Shown: positions 2,080 through 24,185 of the stretch, piece after piece
How the letters are laid out: each line of letters starts with the position of its first letter
Numbering within the stretch: position 1 is the stretch's first letter
Assembly (NCBI GenBank): GCA_030156895.1
Contig: JASGLP010000031.1
Span: forward strand, 1-33,571
Direction: 5' to 3'
DNA length: 33,571 nt
Source: Eubacteriaceae bacterium
GTDB taxonomy: Bacteria > Bacillota > Clostridia > Eubacteriales > Eubacteriaceae
Notes under the pieces: model-generated
What the model was told of the DNA's origin: nothing
Seen by the model: only the letters and a program-made list of their open reading frames with translations
Database searches by the model: none
Position numbers and translations under genes: made by a program

Positions 2080-3645
2080 ATGCAAACTGCTGTTATCTAT
2101 GCCCGTTACAGTTCCGACAACCAGCGTGAGGAATCAATCGAAGGCCAGGTGGAGAGCTGCACCCAGTACGCCCAAGATAATAACATCCGGATTCTTAATA
2201 CCTATGTCGATAAGGCTAAAACCGGTACCAACGATAATCGGGACGGCTTTCGTCAGATGATTAAGGACAGTGTCCGTAAACATTTTGATACTGTCCTGGT
2301 CTGGAAGCTTGACCGCTTCGGCCGTAACCGTGAAGAGATGGCCATTAACAAATCCAAGCTGCGCAAAAACGGCGTGACTGTAAAGAGCGTTAAGGAAAAT
2401 ATTCCGGATGGTCCCGAAGGGGTTTTAATCGAGTCGCTCATGGAGGGGCTGGCCGAATACTACAGCCTTAATCTGTCCCGGGATATCCGGCGCGGCATGC
2501 ATACCAACGCGACCAAGGCCAAAGCCAACGGCGGTAATGTGGCTTTTGGTTACCGGATCGGTAAAGAAAAAGATTTTGAAGTGGTGGAAGAGCTGCGCAC
2601 AGTGGTGGTAGAAATCTTCACCCTTTTTGACAATGGCTACAGTTTTGCTGAGATTACCGACATCATGAACGGCCGCGGTATAAAAACAAGCCGTGGCAAT
2701 GCCTTTAACCGCAGCACCCTGCGGCCGATGCTCAGTAACGAAAAATATATTGGTGTTTATCAGTGTATGGATATCCGAATCGAAGACGCCATTCCGGCGA
2801 TCATTGAAAAGGATCTGTTTTATCGCGTGCAATCTAAATTGGAGGATGTCAGCGTGAAATATCGAAAAAGAAAAAATAAGGCTAATGAAGACCTGGTTTT
2901 TATTTTAACAGGCAAAGTGTTCTGCAGAGAATGCGGCGGCTCTTACCGTGGCGAGAGCGGCACCAGCAAAAAGAAAAAAACATACTATTACTATGTCTGC
3001 GGCAACAGCAAACAGAAGAAAAAAGGCTGCCAGGCTAAGCGAATCGGTAAAGAAAAACTTGAAAAATTAATCATCGATGCGACCATCAAACATGTTTTAA
3101 CGCCTGACTATATCGAAAGAATTGCCAATAATGTTGTTAAGCTGTATGAAGAACATAACGAGTCCCCATACCTGGCTAAACTGATCTGTGACCGCGCAGC
3201 TGCAGAGCAGAAAATTGAGAACATGTTAAAGGCCATTGAAGAAGGGATCTTTACGCCCTCCACAAAGACGCGCCTGGAAACCCTGGAACGTGAAGTTAAT
3301 AACCTGTCTGTTTTAATTACCCGGGAACAAATAAAAAGACCGCCAATCACTAAGGATGCGGTCTTGTGGTTCTTGAATAATTTTACCCGACTTGATTACT
3401 CCGATTCTGAAAGCCAGCTGCGGCTAATCAATTCTTTAATAAACTCTGTCCTGATTGACGGAAACCAGGTCACGATTGCTTATAATTACACCAATAATGA
3501 CGGAAAACCGGCATTCGCTGAGTGTTCGACTAAATCAGATTTGGTGGAGGTGAGGGGAGTCGAACCCCTGTCCGAAAGTCCATTCACAAAAGCTTCTCCG
3601 AGCGCATTCATTGATTATTTTCTCATTTCCCTCCCCCTCCAATGA
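2080..3645 (+). CDS. Large serine recombinase
   Basis: The 521-residue protein is a large serine recombinase. Residues 1-150 form the resolvase-type catalytic domain, with nucleophile Ser11 in YARYSS and a downstream LDRFGRN arginine motif. About 165-260 is the recombinase DNA-binding domain. About 285-345 is a zinc ribbon (CRECGG … CGN … GC). About 375-430 is a predicted coiled coil. These enzymes integrate and excise elements at att sites without long homology. A strong AGGAGG precedes the ATG. Its last 34 codons read through the 3' end of ssrA in antisense (…LVEVRGVEPLSE…), so its C-terminus would probably change if the element were excised. It appears intact and is the likely integrase of the segment to its left. 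Confidence 0.93.
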   Translation: MQTAVIYARYSSDNQREESIEGQVESCTQYAQDNNIRILNTYVDKAKTGTNDNRDGFRQMIKDSVRKHFDTVLVWKLDRFGRNREEMAINKSKLRKNGVTVKSVKENIPDGPEGVLIESLMEGLAEYYSLNLSRDIRRGMHTNATKAKANGGNVAFGYRIGKEKDFEVVEELRTVVVEIFTLFDNGYSFAEITDIMNGRGIKTSRGNAFNRSTLRPMLSNEKYIGVYQCMDIRIEDAIPAIIEKDLFYRVQSKLEDVSVKYRKRKNKANEDLVFILTGKVFCRECGGSYRGESGTSKKKKTYYYYVCGNSKQKKKGCQAKRIGKEKLEKLIIDATIKHVLTPDYIERIANNVVKLYEEHNESPYLAKLICDRAAAEQKIENMLKAIEEGIFTPSTKTRLETLEREVNNLSVLITREQIKRPPITKDAVLWFLNNFTRLDYSDSESQLRLINSLINSVLIDGNQVTIAYNYTNNDGKPAFAECSTKSDLVEVRGVEPLSESPFTKASPSAFIDYFLISLPLQ

Positions 3646-3937
3646 CAAAGTGAGAAAGAAACCAGCCTCTTAGTCGTTAAGGGTGCGAGACACTACCCAA
3701 AACGGTTCCCTGCTTCAATGAACGTCTGAACCCGAAACCACAGGTTGAACCGGGAGACGTGCGGCAGTTTGTGCCGCGGTTAGCATAGAAAGCTAATAAC
3801 TGCGATTAAGCAGCTAAAGCCATTCCGTAGCTATCGTTTGTTTTTGCGTTTATATTTAGGCGCCATTTTTATCGATGATTGGCAACATCGGCTCGCTACT
3901 CAGGCTTCAAAACCCCCGTCGAAACCAGTACACCCCC
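3542..3937 (-). ncRNA. ssrA: tmRNA (ssrA)
   Basis: Both ends are recognisable on the minus strand. The 5' GGGGGUG pairs over 7 bp with CACCUCC just before the 3' ACCA, with a T-arm of the form GGGGUUCGACUCCCC. The 5' section carries the conserved UUUCGACGGGGG run. The tag reading frame (3847 down to 3806) starts at a GCA resume codon and encodes AKTNDSYGMALAA followed by TAA, ending in the usual ALAA degradation signal. The length is 396 nt and CCA is encoded. tmRNA with SmpB frees stalled ribosomes and tags the unfinished protein. The gene starts 3 nt after the smpB stop, and its 3' 104 bp overlap the recombinase coding sequence on the other strand. No terminator follows its 3' end. Confidence 0.97.
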
Positions 3938-3940
3938 AGA

Positions 3941-4399
3941 TTATATGTCACGACGAATACTTTTTTGCATCCGTCGATTGGCATCTCGTTCAGCGATGGA
4001 ATGACGTTTGTCATAATTTTTCTTGCCCTTTGCCAGGGCTAGTTCCATCTTAACCTTGCCATCCTTGAAATAAAGTTTTAAAGGTACCAGTGCATACCCT
4101 TCCCTTTGTGTCAGACCAATCAATTTTCTGATTTCCCGCTTGTGAAGCAATAATTTTCTGGTCCGAAGTGGATCCTTATTGTAAATATTGCCCTGTTCAT
4201 AAGGATTGATATGCATCTGTAAAATAAACACTTCACCATTTCGGATGTCGGCATAGCTTTCCTTAAGACTGACTTTTCCCTGGCGGATTGATTTGACTTC
4301 AGTACCGGACAGTACCAGGCCAACTTCATAGGTGTCTTCAATGAAAAAATCATGTCTGGCTTTTTTATTTTGAGCGACAATTTTAATATTTTCTGCCAT
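3941..4399 (-). CDS. smpB: SsrA-binding protein SmpB
   Basis: The 152-residue protein is a full-length SmpB. It has the [21 protein letters not shown] core and the [15 protein letters not shown]-binding segment. The basic C-terminal tail ([15 protein letters not shown]…) probes the empty mRNA channel of a stalled ribosome. It binds tmRNA and delivers it with EF-Tu. AAGGAGA precedes the ATG. It lies 51 bp downstream of rnr and directly upstream of ssrA, so protein and RNA partners are adjacent and probably share a transcript. Confidence 0.97.
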
Positions 4400-4450
4400 G
4401 GGAATCTCCTTATTTCAGGCTGGATATTAATATTACCACAGTTTCCTTAA

Positions 4451-6580
4451 TTAATCAAGGATCTCAAAATCGATTTCGCGATTTAAGACATCTGCCCGCA
4501 TCACCCGGACAGAAACCGGCTCACCAAGGCGATAAATCTTTCGCGTTCGCTCCCCTACATACTGATGCAGGTCGGGATCAAGGACATAGTAATCATCGCT
4601 TAAATCCTGCAGCCGCACCAGACCTTCGATGGTGTTGGCCAGTTCGACAAAGAGACCGAAGGAAGTCACGCCACTGATGCGGCCTTCAAAAATATCCCCC
4701 AGATGCCTGGTCATATGTTCAGTCATTTTTAGCTTGGTGATTTCCCGCTCAATGGTTTCCGCCCGTCGCTCCGTTTCAGAAGAATGCTTTGCCAACTCTT
4801 CTAAATGGTTATGCAGGTAATCTTTCGTTTTGTCACTTATACCACCATTTTTTAAAAACATTGTCAGATAACGATGAACTAATAGATCGGGATAACGTCT
4901 GATTGGTGATGTAAAATGGGTATAAAAAGGCGCCGCCAGCGCATAGTGGCCAAGATTGTGTCCTTGATAAACCGCTTGTTGCATAGTCCTGAGCATTAAA
5001 AGGGTGATGACCCGTTCTTCATCCCTTCCTTCAATTTCCTTTAAGAGATTCTGAAAATCGGTGCCGCTTGGGATCTGGTCACGACCATCCCCCAGTTTAT
5101 AACCAAAACGACCAATAAAAATCCGAAAAGCTTGAAGTTTGTCTTCATGCGGTGTGGGATGATTTCTGAAAACGAAAGGCGCATCCAGCTTTGAGACATG
5201 TTCGGCTACGGTTTCATTGGCTACCAGCATAAATTCTTCGATAATGCGGTGGGAAACCAGCCGTTCCTCCACCTCAACACTGGCTGGAAAGCCGGAGTCA
5301 TCGAGGATAATTTTAGCTTCCGGAAAATCAAAATTGATGGCGCCCCGGGCATAGCGCCGTTTATCTTTGAGAATGTGAAATAATGCTTCCATGCTACGTA
5401 GAGTTGGCCCAAAGGCCTTAATCGCTTCGGTTTCCTCGTTTTCTTCCCCGCTTAGCAAAGCACCGACCTGGTCATAATTCATCCTTGCTTTGGAACAGAT
5501 GACCGATTTAAAAATCTCGTAGTAGACAACCTGTCCTAGGTCATTAATTTCCATTTGACAGGAAAAAGTCAGCCGATCTTCATTTGCTACCAGGCTGCAG
5601 ATGCCGTTTGACAGTTTAAAAGGAAGCATTGGCACGACCCGGTCCACCACATAAACAGAGTTACCCCGCTCTGCGGCCGCATCATCAAGAGCTGTTCTGG
5701 CTTTAACATAGTGGCTGACATCGGCGATATGAACCCCCAGCAGAAAATGCCCATTAGCTAGTCTGGAAATCGAAACAGCGTCATCGAAATCCTTAGCATC
5801 TCTACCGTCGATAGTAAAAATTTCCTCCTGTCGCAAGTCCCGCCGCTTACTTAGTTCGGTATCAGAAATATAATCTGCTATACTTTTGACTTCATCGATC
5901 ACTTCGAAATTAAAGTTCATGGGAATACCGTAACCGCGGATAATTGACAGGATATCAATCCCCCTGTCTTTTTCGTTGCCCAAAATTTCGACGATTTTAC
6001 CTTCCGGATTTTTGTGATGATCCGGCCAGCAGGTAATTTCCACGACAACCTTATCGCCGGTTTGAGCCTGACATTTCTTATCAGAAGGGATATAAACGTC
6101 CTTACAGATGCGGTCATTATCCGGCGTAACAAAGCCAAAGTCGCGACTTTTTTCGTAGCGACCAACAAGCTGCTGATGGCCCCGTTCCAGGATTTCAACC
6201 ACCTGACCCTCATTTTTTTTACCGCCGCGAATCAAGCTAATACGGACTCGATCCTTATCCAATGCCCCATTTAGATGGCTGGCTGAAATATAAACATCTT
6301 CAGAGAACAAAGAATCTTCGGGAATTAAAAATGCAAAGCCTTTCTGATGCCCTTGTAGGGTCCCAATAATTTGCGGTTGTCGGTCTTTTTTGTATTGATT
6401 TCGATCATTGGATTTATTTTTCTTTTTGGAATCTGTTTCATTTAAAATATTGGAAAGCATCTGTCGTTCTTTTTTCTTTCGCAGACCGATAAAAGCCGAT
6501 AATTCATTGAAATCCATTTCCTGAAAAACCGGATCATTCATTAGTCGTCTGACAATCCGTTTGAGTTCTTTTGTTTTCAT
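4451..6580 (-). CDS. rnr: Ribonuclease R
   Basis: The 709-residue protein is a processive 3'-5' exoribonuclease of the RNB family. An N-terminal basic helical region precedes the cold-shock-like domains (about 60-200). The catalytic RNB domain contains the metal-binding DGRDAKDFDDA motif near residues 257-267. A C-terminal S1 domain (GRISGVTSFGLFVEL) binds RNA. In-frame ATGs at 6616 and 6592 are less likely than 6580, which has GGAG 6 bp upstream. RNase R degrades mRNAs released by trans-translation, which fits its place just before smpB and ssrA. It lies 103 bp after mutS, so it may have its own promoter in that gap, but I could not identify one. Confidence 0.96.
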   Translation of the reverse strand: MKTKELKRIVRRLMNDPVFQEMDFNELSAFIGLRKKKERQMLSNILNETDSKKKNKSNDRNQYKKDRQPQIIGTLQGHQKGFAFLIPEDSLFSEDVYISASHLNGALDKDRVRISLIRGGKKNEGQVVEILERGHQQLVGRYEKSRDFGFVTPDNDRICKDVYIPSDKKCQAQTGDKVVVEITCWPDHHKNPEGKIVEILGNEKDRGIDILSIIRGYGIPMNFNFEVIDEVKSIADYISDTELSKRRDLRQEEIFTIDGRDAKDFDDAVSISRLANGHFLLGVHIADVSHYVKARTALDDAAAERGNSVYVVDRVVPMLPFKLSNGICSLVANEDRLTFSCQMEINDLGQVVYYEIFKSVICSKARMNYDQVGALLSGEENEETEAIKAFGPTLRSMEALFHILKDKRRYARGAINFDFPEAKIILDDSGFPASVEVEERLVSHRIIEEFMLVANETVAEHVSKLDAPFVFRNHPTPHEDKLQAFRIFIGRFGYKLGDGRDQIPSGTDFQNLLKEIEGRDEERVITLLMLRTMQQAVYQGHNLGHYALAAPFYTHFTSPIRRYPDLLVHRYLTMFLKNGGISDKTKDYLHNHLEELAKHSSETERRAETIEREITKLKMTEHMTRHLGDIFEGRISGVTSFGLFVELANTIEGLVRLQDLSDDYYVLDPDLHQYVGERTRKIYRLGEPVSVRVMRADVLNREIDFEILD

Positions 6581-21713: not shown

Positions 21714-22826
21714 ATGGTTCCACAATTAAAAATTAATCTCAATAAAATATACGAAAACACCAAAGCCATTGTCGCAAAGGCTCAGAGTCAGGGGATTTCA
21801 GTTACAGCTATTAGCAAACTGACTGGTGGTGAACCCGGGGTCGCCCAGGTCTATCTCGATGCCGGTATTACTGCTATAGGAGATTCCAGAATCATAAATC
21901 TTAAAAAAATGGCTGCTTTGTCCTGTGAAAAATGGCTGATCCGATTACCGGCTCCAGGGGAAGTTGCCGATGTCGTTGAATACGCCGATATTTCTTTAAA
22001 TAGTGAAATAAAAACCATCAGTCTTTTAAATGAAGCGGCTGCCGGCAAAAATAAAAAGCATGGTATCTTGTATATGGTTGACCTGGGGGATTTAAGAGAA
22101 GGCTTATTCCTAGGAGACGGGCGACAGTCTTCTCCCCAAAATGAAAAGCTGATTGCCGATAATTTTAAAAAACTTTCAGCTGATATTGAGGCAATTAAAA
22201 AAATGCCTCATATTAATTTTAAGGGGCTGGCGACCAACGCCACCTGTGTAGGTGCGACAATACCAAGGCCGGAGACCTTTGGAGCCCTTGAACGAGCGGC
22301 AAAACTGATTTACGAAGAACACCAGCTGCCCCTCGAAATTATTTCCGGCGGCAATTCCAGCGCCTGGCATCTGGTTAATCAGCAGGCTCTCCCCCCCTAC
22401 ATCAATAACCTGCGTCTAGGTGAATTGATCCTGCTGGGCCGGGAAACAGCCTATGGTGAAATCTTTCCCGACCTCAATCAGGATATCTTTCATCTCGAAG
22501 TGGAAATTATTGAAATTCAGGAAAAGCCCACCTATCCATTGGGAGAAATTGGACTCAATGCATTCGGTGAAAAGCCAGTCTTTATTGATAAAGGAATCAG
22601 AAAAAGAGCTATTTGTGCTCTAGGCCGGCAGGATACCGATACCGACCATATCTTCCCCCTTGATCCAGGAATTACTGTTGAAGGGTCCAGTTCCGACCAT
22701 CTGGTCCTAGACATTACCGATTCAAAAAAGCCATTGGATATTGGTGACCGTCTGAATTTTCGTTGCGACTATTCTGGCGCCTTACATGCCGCAACCACAG
22801 AATACGTTAAAAAAGTATTAGTATAA
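21714..22826 (+). CDS. orr: Ornithine/alanine racemase family PLP enzyme
   Basis: The 370-residue protein has an alanine-racemase-type barrel. Lys35 (ISKLTGG) is the expected PLP lysine. GDSRIINLKKM, VDLGDLREG, the phosphate-binding ISGGNSSAWHL and GRETAYGEIF follow. The C-terminal half has KPTYPLGEIGLNAFGEKP and GIRKRAICALGRQDTD. These match the clostridial ornithine racemase (Orr) type more closely than biosynthetic alanine racemase. Orr converts L- to D-ornithine in ornithine fermentation, but no other genes of that pathway are next to it, so the substrate is open. GGGAG precedes the ATG. Confidence 0.82.
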   Translation: MVPQLKINLNKIYENTKAIVAKAQSQGISVTAISKLTGGEPGVAQVYLDAGITAIGDSRIINLKKMAALSCEKWLIRLPAPGEVADVVEYADISLNSEIKTISLLNEAAAGKNKKHGILYMVDLGDLREGLFLGDGRQSSPQNEKLIADNFKKLSADIEAIKKMPHINFKGLATNATCVGATIPRPETFGALERAAKLIYEEHQLPLEIISGGNSSAWHLVNQQALPPYINNLRLGELILLGRETAYGEIFPDLNQDIFHLEVEIIEIQEKPTYPLGEIGLNAFGEKPVFIDKGIRKRAICALGRQDTDTDHIFPLDPGITVEGSSSDHLVLDITDSKKPLDIGDRLNFRCDYSGALHAATTEYVKKVLV

Positions 22827-22827
22827 A

Positions 22828-23044
22828 AAACGCTTTATAAAGCGTCAGTGCGTAGACAAACCCCGCACCGACCAATTGAATTTCGCAGTCTGCGCGCGGA
22901 TTCGTACAGTTGCCCAATTTGAAATTGCTAATTATAGGCATTTGCAAGCCAACTGTTCGCCCCGAGGCAGACAGCTGAAAAGCCAATTGTCGGTGCTCAG
23001 GTATTAAAAATTACTTTGTCTTAAGTCTGAAACGCTTTATAAAG
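22828..23044. repeat. Palindromic MITE-like element with flanking direct repeats
   Basis: A 187-bp sequence is flanked by 15-bp perfect direct repeats, AAACGCTTTATAAAG (22828-22842 and 23030-23044). Inside, helices nest one within another: AGACAAA/TTTGTCT (22854-22860, 23015-23021); GCACCGACCAATTG/CAATTGTCGGTGC with one bulge (22865-22878, 22984-22996); GTCTGC/GCAGAC (22888-22893, 22967-22972); ACAGTTG/CAACTGT (22906-22912, 22950-22956). It has no open frame. It looks like a non-autonomous inserted element or a structured RNA. The flanking repeats are themselves palindromic, so paired operators are an alternative. Confidence 0.6.
23016..23043 (+). promoter_or_regulatory. Possible promoter of the dehydrogenase gene
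   Basis: TTGTCT (23016-23021), 16 bp and TATAAA (23038-23043) lie 29 bp before the ATG. The -10 sits within the near-palindrome ACGCTTTATAAAGTGT (23032-23047). Confidence 0.5.
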
Positions 23045-23072
23045 TGTATTACAACATTAAAAGGAGAAAACA

Positions 23073-24185
23073 ATGGAAAGTAAGTATTATATCCCGTTTG
23101 ATAAACTAGAAGCCTTTATGACCGATGCCTTAAAAGGAATCGGCGTGCCGGAAGAAGATGCTAAAATTTGTGCTGATATCCTGATCACCTCGGATAAACG
23201 TGGGATTGACTCCCACGGTATAGGCAGACTAAAACCGATTTATTATGATCGTATTAAAAAGGGAATTCAAAATCCAGTAACTGAGTTTGAAATTGTCAAA
23301 GATGTATGTGCAACAGCTGTAATTGATGGTCATGATGGAATGGGACATGTTATTGCCAAACGTGCCATGCAAATGGCTATTGATAAAGCAAAAGTGTATG
23401 GCATGGGAATGACTGTTGTTAGAAATTCCACCCACTATGGTTTTGCTGGTTACTATCCGCTAATGGCAATTGACAATAATATGATTGGAATGACGGGAAC
23501 CAATGCCAGACCATCCATCGCCCCAACCTTTGGTGTTGAAAATATGTTGGGAACGAATCCCATTACAATTGGCCTGCCAACCGATGAAGCCTTTCCATTT
23601 GTCTTAGATTGTGCCACATCAGTTTCTCAGCGCGGCAAGATTGAAGTGTATGACCGCGAAAATAAGCCCCTACCCGAAGGCTGGGTAATTGACCGAGATG
23701 GCAATACTCGCACCGATACTAAACAGATTTTGATCGATCTGGTTAAGGGTAACGCCGCCCTCACACCCCTTGGTGGGATTGGCGAAGAAACCGGTGGCTA
23801 TAAAGGCTATGGATATGCGACTTTTGTCGAAATCATGTCAGCCGCACTACAGGGTGGTTCCTTTTTAAAGGGGCTTTTGGGATTTGATGCTAACGGCAAC
23901 CCTCAACCCTATCACCTGGGACATTTCTTTATTGCCATTAATATCGAGAACTTTATAGAAGCTGACCAATTTAAAAAGATCTCTGGCAACATTTTAAGAG
24001 ATTTAAGAAATTCTGATAAAATGCCAGGTCAAGATCGCATTTATACGGCCGGAGAAAAAGAGTATGATGCCTGGTGCCAAAGAAAAGATAAAGGTGCTCC
24101 GGTCAATGATGCCTTAATTAAAGATATTCTAGATATTAAAGCTGAATTGGGTCTAAGCCAGTATCAGTTTCCTTTCGAAAAATAA
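23073..24185 (+). CDS. Ldh-family (malate/L-lactate-type) NAD(P)H dehydrogenase
   Basis: The 370-residue protein belongs to the Ldh_2 family, which is unrelated in fold to the classical Rossmann lactate/malate dehydrogenases. Visible features are ITSDKRGIDSHGIGRL (substrate-binding region), the NSTHYGFAGYY catalytic histidine segment, NMLGTNPITIG and the ETGGYKGYGYATFVEI stretch. Members reduce or oxidise malate, lactate, ureidoglycolate and similar 2-hydroxyacids; the substrate cannot be read from sequence alone. AAGGAG precedes the ATG. The EAL-domain gene starts 24 bp downstream, so both may share a transcript. Confidence 0.88.
   Translation: MESKYYIPFDKLEAFMTDALKGIGVPEEDAKICADILITSDKRGIDSHGIGRLKPIYYDRIKKGIQNPVTEFEIVKDVCATAVIDGHDGMGHVIAKRAMQMAIDKAKVYGMGMTVVRNSTHYGFAGYYPLMAIDNNMIGMTGTNARPSIAPTFGVENMLGTNPITIGLPTDEAFPFVLDCATSVSQRGKIEVYDRENKPLPEGWVIDRDGNTRTDTKQILIDLVKGNAALTPLGGIGEETGGYKGYGYATFVEIMSAALQGGSFLKGLLGFDANGNPQPYHLGHFFIAINIENFIEADQFKKISGNILRDLRNSDKMPGQDRIYTAGEKEYDAWCQRKDKGAPVNDALIKDILDIKAELGLSQYQFPFEK

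What the first reader, a model, noticed from the sequence alone, without database searches (positions are those of the whole stretch)
22828..23044. A 187-bp nested-palindrome element bounded by 15-bp direct repeats
Four helices of 6-14 bp nest in order inside each other, and the whole is framed by identical AAACGCTTTATAAAG copies. Two readings fit. One is a non-autonomous transposable element with an unusually long target duplication, inserted into a palindromic site downstream of orr. The other is a structured RNA lying in the orr-dehydrogenase gap. I recognise no known family. The element also supplies TTGTCT, the likely -35 of the dehydrogenase, so it may have rewired expression of that gene.
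Basis: partly seen in the sequence, partly recalled or inferred. Interest (0 to 1): 0.75.

Follow-up and report, generated by a model that had tools for sequence, protein, structure and literature searches.

The report
Miniature transposon that duplicates terminator hairpins
The element is one copy of a small jumping DNA, repeated about a hundred times in this Acetobacterium genome, that inserts into the hairpins found at the ends of genes and leaves a whole copy of the hairpin on each side, which may let it multiply with little harm to its host.

Summary
The element (22845-23030, 186 bp) is a MITE in an Acetobacterium genome with 101 matches to its core. The framing 15-mers are not part of it; they are two copies of this locus's target palindrome. 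Other copies have other palindromes, duplicated whole: 43 of 46 examined copies exceed the control, with repeats of 14-24 nt, up to about 30 nt in congeners. 41 of 46 have a T run behind or an A run before the hairpin, as in intrinsic terminators. Empty sites show it directly: between rpsO and pnp, 17 of 18 congeners show one hairpin GGCGGAATACTCCGCC; this genome has two around the element. A second site agrees. Sister MITEs share ends with complete IS1182-family elements that also duplicate hairpins. Likely mechanism: an IS1182-family transposase, acting in trans, joins the ends at the two feet of a hairpin or cruciform, and repair duplicates it. The characterised relative IS1272 deletes the hairpin instead. 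The core's fold is conserved, but 14:15 gene orientation argues against a strand-specific RNA. The promoter idea is unsupported.

The parts
22845..23030 (+). MITE body, 186 bp (orientation arbitrary; boundaries +/-1 nt)
   Evidence: Alignment with other own-genome copies; 101 matches to its 26-base core at up to 3 mismatches in the genome, control 0
22845..22860 (+). left terminal inverted repeat TCAGTGCGTAGACAAA
   Evidence: pattern TCAGNNTGNAGACAAA, up to 1 mismatch: 67+61 hits in the genome against 1+2 for the reversed control
23015..23030 (-). right terminal inverted repeat TCAGACTTAAGACAAA (read on the - strand)
   Evidence: MITE right ends of congeners read TCAGACTGTCAAAAAA, identical to ends of complete IS1182-family elements
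22828..22845 (.). left copy of the target palindrome AAACGCTTTATAAAGCGT (target duplication, not part of the element)
   Evidence: other copies carry other palindromes in this place; on the - strand it meets the terminator pattern (1 found, 0.5 expected)
23030..23047 (.). right copy of the target palindrome AAACGCTTTATAAAGTGT
22865..22996 (+). conserved nested-hairpin core: helix 1 22865-22879/22983-22996, helix 2 22881-22893/22967-22979, helix 3 22903-22913/22948-22959
   Evidence: 98.2% of 1424 cells paired; 66 cells with changes on both sides, 0 of 500 shuffles as high
21714..22826 (+). orr-like gene (ornithine racemase Orr model NF040742, 423.8 bits, below its cut-off of 480)
23073..24185 (+). 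malate/lactate/sulfolactate-type dehydrogenase gene downstream (best model NF040650, 259.3 bits, below its cut-off of 500)

Best explanation
The element is a MITE mobilised in trans by an IS1182-family (DDE) transposase recognising its ends. The transposase chooses targets by structure: a palindrome able to form a hairpin or cruciform, in practice mostly at the ends of genes. It joins the element to the two 5' feet of the stem, so that gap repair copies the whole hairpin to both sides. SHOWN here: high copy number, inverted-repeat ends, locus-specific palindromes duplicated whole, two empty sites with one hairpin, and complete IS1182-family elements with matching or similar ends and the same duplications. 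INFERRED: that such a transposase moved this very family, that the target is recognised as an extruded hairpin or cruciform, and that the duplication makes insertion nearly harmless by leaving both neighbouring genes a terminator.
For: Copies: besides itself, 39 long matches at 85-93% identity (40 of 171 candidates scored); 101 matches to a 26-base core at up to 3 mismatches, control 0. Ends: 128 terminal-repeat hits against 3 in the control. Duplications: of 46 full-length copies examined, 43 have left/right flank similarity above the 99th percentile of mismatched flank pairs; 14 of 46 are exact; 37 of the 43 abut both element ends within 1 nt; lengths 14 to 24. A palindrome scoring 6 or more abuts at least one end in 35 of 46 (28 left, 27 right), against 1.85% of 2000 random positions tested on one side. 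A T run follows the right hairpin copy in 31 of 46, an A run precedes the left copy in 28, either in 41; random positions 11.8%. Congeners: 44 of 170 related cores have both terminal repeats, and 31 of these 44 have duplicated flanks, up to about 30 nt (copies from related genomes are not all independent). Empty sites: rpsO-pnp, one hairpin GGCGGAATACTCCGCC in 17 of 18 congeners, two here; second locus L012, both flanks overlap by 23 nt on one hairpin AAGCCCCTGCTTTTGCAGGGGCTT in the closest congener. Window locus: gap 246 bp = 44 + 202, against 32-45 bp in 14 of 18 congeners. Context: 43 of 44 classifiable copies have at least one gene pointing into the element. Autonomous relatives: L153, L154, L155, L166 with ends TCAGACTGTC.. 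or TCAGACTGTTG.., flanked by whole palindromes; the two transposases tested exceed the IS1182 model's cut-off (362.5 and 410.9 bits, cut-off 270). A truncated DUF772 transposase in G009 starts behind TCAGACTGAAGACGAA at a hairpin.
Against: No matching transposase was found in this genome: PF13751 gives 0 hits, and the only PF05598 hit is an IS5-type transposase without these ends; the assembly is a 101-contig draft, 85% complete. The nearest intact IS1182 elements share only the first 8 bases (TCAGACTG) with the own-genome right end; the GACAAA part was seen beside transposases only in broken remnants of G009 (one end each). 3 of 46 copies do not exceed the duplication control. At the window locus no congener shows the single palindrome; the right copy has no T run, so on the + strand it is not a clear terminator. 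13 of 44 congener MITEs with both ends lack an above-control duplication, and 126 of 170 cores lack one or both ends. In 13 of the 17 congeners at rpsO-pnp the left-flank alignment stops before the hairpin.
Confidence: 0.88

Rival explanations
1. A structured RNA (3' UTR element or small RNA) is the selected function, and the terminal repeats are only the vehicle that spread it.
For: Nested helices conserved over 42 copies of the genus, with changes on both sides in 66 cells of 6 pairs and covariation score 0.143 against 0.068 in shuffles. Cores without any recognised terminal repeat are common: 85 of 170 examined. The type-B core occurs in 16 of 19 genus genomes, up to 105 copies.
Against: Orientation to co-directional genes is 14 to 15, and 14 more copies lie between convergent genes. 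No Rfam family reaches threshold at the element. The apical part varies freely. The number of pairs with double changes (6) is not above shuffles (165 of 500 as high). A palindrome that must form in DNA would show the same covariation.
Confidence: 0.12
2. A transposon with a long duplication of fixed length, from another family known for long duplications (recalled: IS1202/ISTde1 group), that merely prefers dyad-symmetric DNA.
For: Long direct repeats are typical there (recalled, not tested).
Against: Duplication length is not fixed: 14 to 24 nt here, up to about 30 nt in congeners. The transposases found with like ends belong to IS1182.
Confidence: 0.04
3. A REP/BIME- or PATE-like palindrome moved by a single-strand (HUH, IS200/IS605 or RAYT) transposase.
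For: Palindromic, intergenic, high copy number.
Against: It has terminal inverted repeats and target duplications, which PATEs and IS605-type elements lack (PMC3119063, passages). No HUH transposase was looked for.
Confidence: 0.02

Closest known systems
IS1272 / TnSha1 (IS1182 family, Staphylococcus; PMC5678879 abstract and passages; PMC4923244 passages)
   Same: IS1182-family transposase; target is a hairpin without sequence consensus; some targets are terminators. Both papers cite a review saying that some IS1182 members target palindromic sequences.
   Different: IS1272 replaces or deletes the hairpin and makes no duplication, whereas here the whole hairpin is duplicated. The 2017 paper drew this outcome as an alternative in its model (pathway b). 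IS1272 carries its own transposase.
   Same: Ends start TCAGACTG or TGAGGTTG; flanked by direct copies of whole palindromes
   Different: About 1.5 kb with a transposase gene (frameshifted in L155); end sequence differs from this MITE after the first 8 bases
Bacterial MITEs in general (review PMC10969869, passages)
   Same: Short, terminal inverted repeats, direct repeats, stem-loop forming, often intergenic
   Different: Target is a structure, and duplication length follows the hairpin; the review text has no occurrence of IS1182 or hairpin
REP sequences as targets of insertion sequences (PMC1525189, search listing only)
   Same: Insertion into extragenic palindromes
   Different: There the target is a repeat family; here unrelated hairpins, duplicated whole

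Membership tests
MITE | short, multicopy, no transposase gene | tested here: met
   186 bp; no ORF of 80 aa or more overlaps it; 101 core matches
MITE | terminal inverted repeats | tested here: met
   imperfect 16-bp repeats; 67+61 hits against 1+2 control
MITE | target site duplication | tested here: met
   43 of 46 above control; empty sites
MITE | ends shared with an autonomous element | tested here: inconclusive
   exact for sister MITEs of congeners (TCAGACTGTCAAAAAA in MITE and IS); for the own-genome end only beside broken transposases in G009
IS1182 family (as source of the transposase) | IS1182-type DDE transposase between the ends | tested here: met
   for L153 and L166: NF033551 over cut-off, PF13751, PF05598; the MITE itself encodes none, and no such gene was found in its genome
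IS1272-type hairpin replacement | target hairpin removed, no duplication | tested here: not met
   hairpin present at both ends
Rfam structured RNA family | match above a family's gathering score | tested here: not met
   only tmRNA in the window; best sub-threshold match near the element 20.9 bits against 47
functional RNA | strand preference or effect on expression | tested here: inconclusive
   14:15 orientation; no expression data

The most novel reading that the evidence does not exclude
A clade of IS1182-family transposases reads DNA secondary structure, not sequence, and joins at the two feet of whatever hairpin it meets, so the length of the target duplication is set by the target. Because the target is usually a terminator and both neighbours keep a copy, insertion is self-repairing, which would explain about a hundred copies per genome. 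The nested palindromic cores of the genus may themselves have grown by insertions into one another's hairpins.
Probability: 0.5. Interest if true: 0.72.

Novelty: new variant of a known kind. Interest (0 to 1): 0.6.

Why it matters
It would be a natural, many-times-replicated record of an outcome that the IS1272 authors drew only as an alternative branch of their model: duplication of a whole target hairpin. It makes structure-guided target choice testable, since the duplication length reports where the joints fell. It also suggests why a mobile element can reach a hundred copies: it lands on gene ends and leaves each neighbour a terminator.

Tried and rejected
Rejected: (a) promoter rewiring. 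The scan of 22780-23090 found no + strand site. By eye TTGTCT 23016-23021 and TATAAA 23038-23043 are 16 nt apart, but the first is the common terminal repeat. (b) Plasmids or phages: no match. (c) An autonomous copy in the own genome among end hits without a partner: 20 stretches were fetched; the hits there proved to be full, shortened or fragmentary MITE copies or unrelated, and no transposase was recognised by eye in the ORF lists of two of them. The hit list was cut, so not every end was looked at. (d) Other IS1182-type elements of the genus whose ends I compared (L129, L130, L133, L131, L132, L134): other ends, no whole-hairpin duplication seen; L132 lies between the arms of a palindrome without duplication, as IS1272 does. 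The remaining PF13751 loci were not resolved. (e) Integron attC sites were considered for the modular cores and dropped by eye (recalled consensus; no call). (f) The own-type core in named genomes: 0 stretches, but records of the own genome may be left out there. (g) Literature: the search listings showed no title or abstract start about a MITE with whole-hairpin duplication. A 2025 paper (PMC12056078, passages) says that IS1182-related transposases act with or without target duplication and by target sequence or structure. ISfinder and most subscription papers could not be searched, so this is not a claim that none is in print.

Limits: the 46 copies examined for duplications are those read full-length from fetched loci, out of at least 101. 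In the gene-context count 2 of 46 were dropped: one with a short flank, and one (L055, also divergent) whose right ORF was too short; the ORF calls are crude. The 42 sequences of the covariation alignment were hand-picked: 22 of 46 own copies and 20 of 28 relatives listed, chosen for near-full-length matches, which favours a conserved structure. The number of further pair types was below shuffles (13 against 15.1).

Full report
Observation. One Rfam family, tmRNA, reaches threshold in the window, at 3542-3937, and none at the element.

Copies. The window is contig 32 of a 3.0-Mb draft (101 contigs, 85% complete). A search with 22800-23070 gave, besides itself, 39 long matches at 85-93% identity and 4 short ones (40 of 171 candidates scored); most long matches cover about 22842-23032. 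A 26-base core at up to 3 mismatches occurs 101 times, reversed control 0. The end motif TCAGNNTGNAGACAAA at up to 1 mismatch occurs 128 times, control 3. There is no match in the plasmid and phage collections. Of 41 genomes searched, 15 matched: the own genome and 14 of 18 congeners; 0 of 22 genomes of other genera.

What frames each copy. Aligning copies with their flanks shows that the framing repeat differs from copy to copy and is usually a palindrome, for example GGCGGAGTATTCCGCC, GACTTCACGATTGTGAAGTC or GCCCATGAATTTCATGGGC, repeated directly on both sides. Of 46 distinct full-length copies, 43 exceed the 99th percentile of mismatched flank pairs, 14 are exact, and lengths spread from 14 to 24 nt. 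A palindrome scoring 6 or more touches at least one end in 35 of 46, against 1.85% of 2000 random positions tested on one side. A T run follows the right hairpin copy in 31 of 46, an A run precedes the left copy in 28, and at least one of the two in 41; random positions 11.8%. Of 44 copies with readable neighbours, 14 and 15 lie in tandem contexts of the two orientations, 14 between convergent genes and 1 between divergent genes; 2 of 46 were dropped, one of them apparently divergent too. This is what insertion at the ends of transcription units predicts, without strand preference.

Empty sites. Copy L011 lies between rpsO and pnp (gene names recognised by eye, not from a call). In the closest congener, G014 (orr protein 82% identical), left and right flanks align to one place and overlap by 17 nt on a single hairpin. 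In all, 17 of 18 congeners show one GGCGGAATACTCCGCC in the stretch between the flank matches; in 4 of them the flanks align straight through, in 13 the left-flank alignment stops 53-113 nt before. G018 gave no flank match. The own genome has two exact copies with the element between them. At a second locus (L012) the flanks overlap by 23 nt on one hairpin in G014; the two own copies there differ by an indel. At the window locus the orr-dehydrogenase gap is 32-45 bp in 14 of 18 congeners, 115-200 bp in three, and not measurable in one. It is 246 bp here, which is 44 plus 202. No congener shows the single AAACGCTTTATAAAG, so the ancestral target at this locus is inferred. On the - strand the left copy meets the terminator pattern (1 found, 0.5 expected).

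Source of mobility. No PF13751 transposase was found in the own genome. The single PF05598 hit is an IS5-type transposase without these ends. In the genus and order, four elements with such ends (L153, L154, L155, L166; L155 frameshifted) are flanked by palindromes. The duplication is exact in L166 (GCCAATTTTATAAAATTGGC) and L154 (CACTAATATATATATTAGT), one mismatch off in L153, and diverged in L155. The L153 and L166 transposases pass the IS1182 model's cut-off. Sister MITEs of congeners end in TCAGACTGTCAAAAAA, the same 16 letters as the ends of L153 and L154. In G009 a broken DUF772 transposase begins behind TCAGACTGAAGACGAA at a hairpin, and a PF13751 remnant lies beside TCAGACTGTAGACAAA; only one end of each was seen. 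Of 170 type-B cores examined, 44 have both ends, 41 one and 85 none; 31 of the 44 have duplicated flanks, the longest about 30 nt.

Mechanism. [quoted passage not shown] Wan et al. 2017 (PMC5678879; abstract and passages) drew this as an alternative (pathway b) to the replacement seen for IS1272. Furi et al. 2016 (PMC4923244; passages) also report deletion and no duplication. Both mention a review in which some IS1182 members target palindromes; I have not seen that review. The present family and its IS relatives show the duplication outcome. That a hairpin or cruciform, rather than duplex dyad symmetry, is recognised is inference.

The core. Across 42 hand-picked copies, 34 pairs are formed in 98.2% of cells; 66 cells are changed on both sides, against 22.2 in shuffles, with 0 of 500 as high; slid controls fall to at most 49.8% paired. 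However, the number of pairs with double changes (6) is not above shuffles (165 of 500 as high), further pair types are below shuffles (13 against 15.1), and many changes separate only a few sequence groups. So the fold is kept by selection or by palindrome-preserving DNA processes; the data do not decide between DNA and RNA. Core interiors in congeners are modular: inner hairpins are swapped or inserted.

Verdict. A known class (MITE) with an unusual target and duplication rule that is well supported by empty sites. New variant of a known kind.

Noticed in passing
L078 (G004:C189) versus L076 (G003:C81): With near-identical left flanks, the core in L078 carries an extra segment of about 88 nt (by eye) with its own palindromes inside one arm that L076 lacks; similar modules recur in L096, L192 and L205. 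This looks like nested growth of palindromes.
   Followed up: partly
type-B cores in congeners, e.g. L082, L095, L098, L191: 85 of 170 examined cores have no recognised terminal repeat, yet keep the nested hairpin, so the core may be an independent unit.
   Followed up: partly
L132 (G011:C1:2960500-2966500), IS at about 2710-4780: A different IS1182-type element (584-aa frame) sits between two arms of a palindrome (GATGGCCGGAAT / ATTCCGGCCATT) without duplication, resembling IS1272 hairpin replacement; two targeting outcomes may coexist in one genus.
   Followed up: partly
orr-dehydrogenase gap in L170 (G005), L179 (G009), L182 (G004), L184 (G008): Three congeners have longer gaps (200, 115, 151 bp) with other, partly repeat-like sequence, and in one the dehydrogenase was not in the fetched stretch; the gap may be an insertion hot spot.
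   Followed up: no
L124, L125, L128 (G009): Another repeat family in the 4,044,777-bp genome with ends like TCAGACTGT.GA.AAA next to hairpins; L124/L125 82% alike over 148 nt, L125/L128 94% over 72 nt.
   Followed up: no
L055:4378-4463 and L060:2127-2213 (own genome): Shortened copies of about 86 bp keep both end motifs.
   Followed up: no
window 3542-3937, - strand: tmRNA gene.
   Followed up: no
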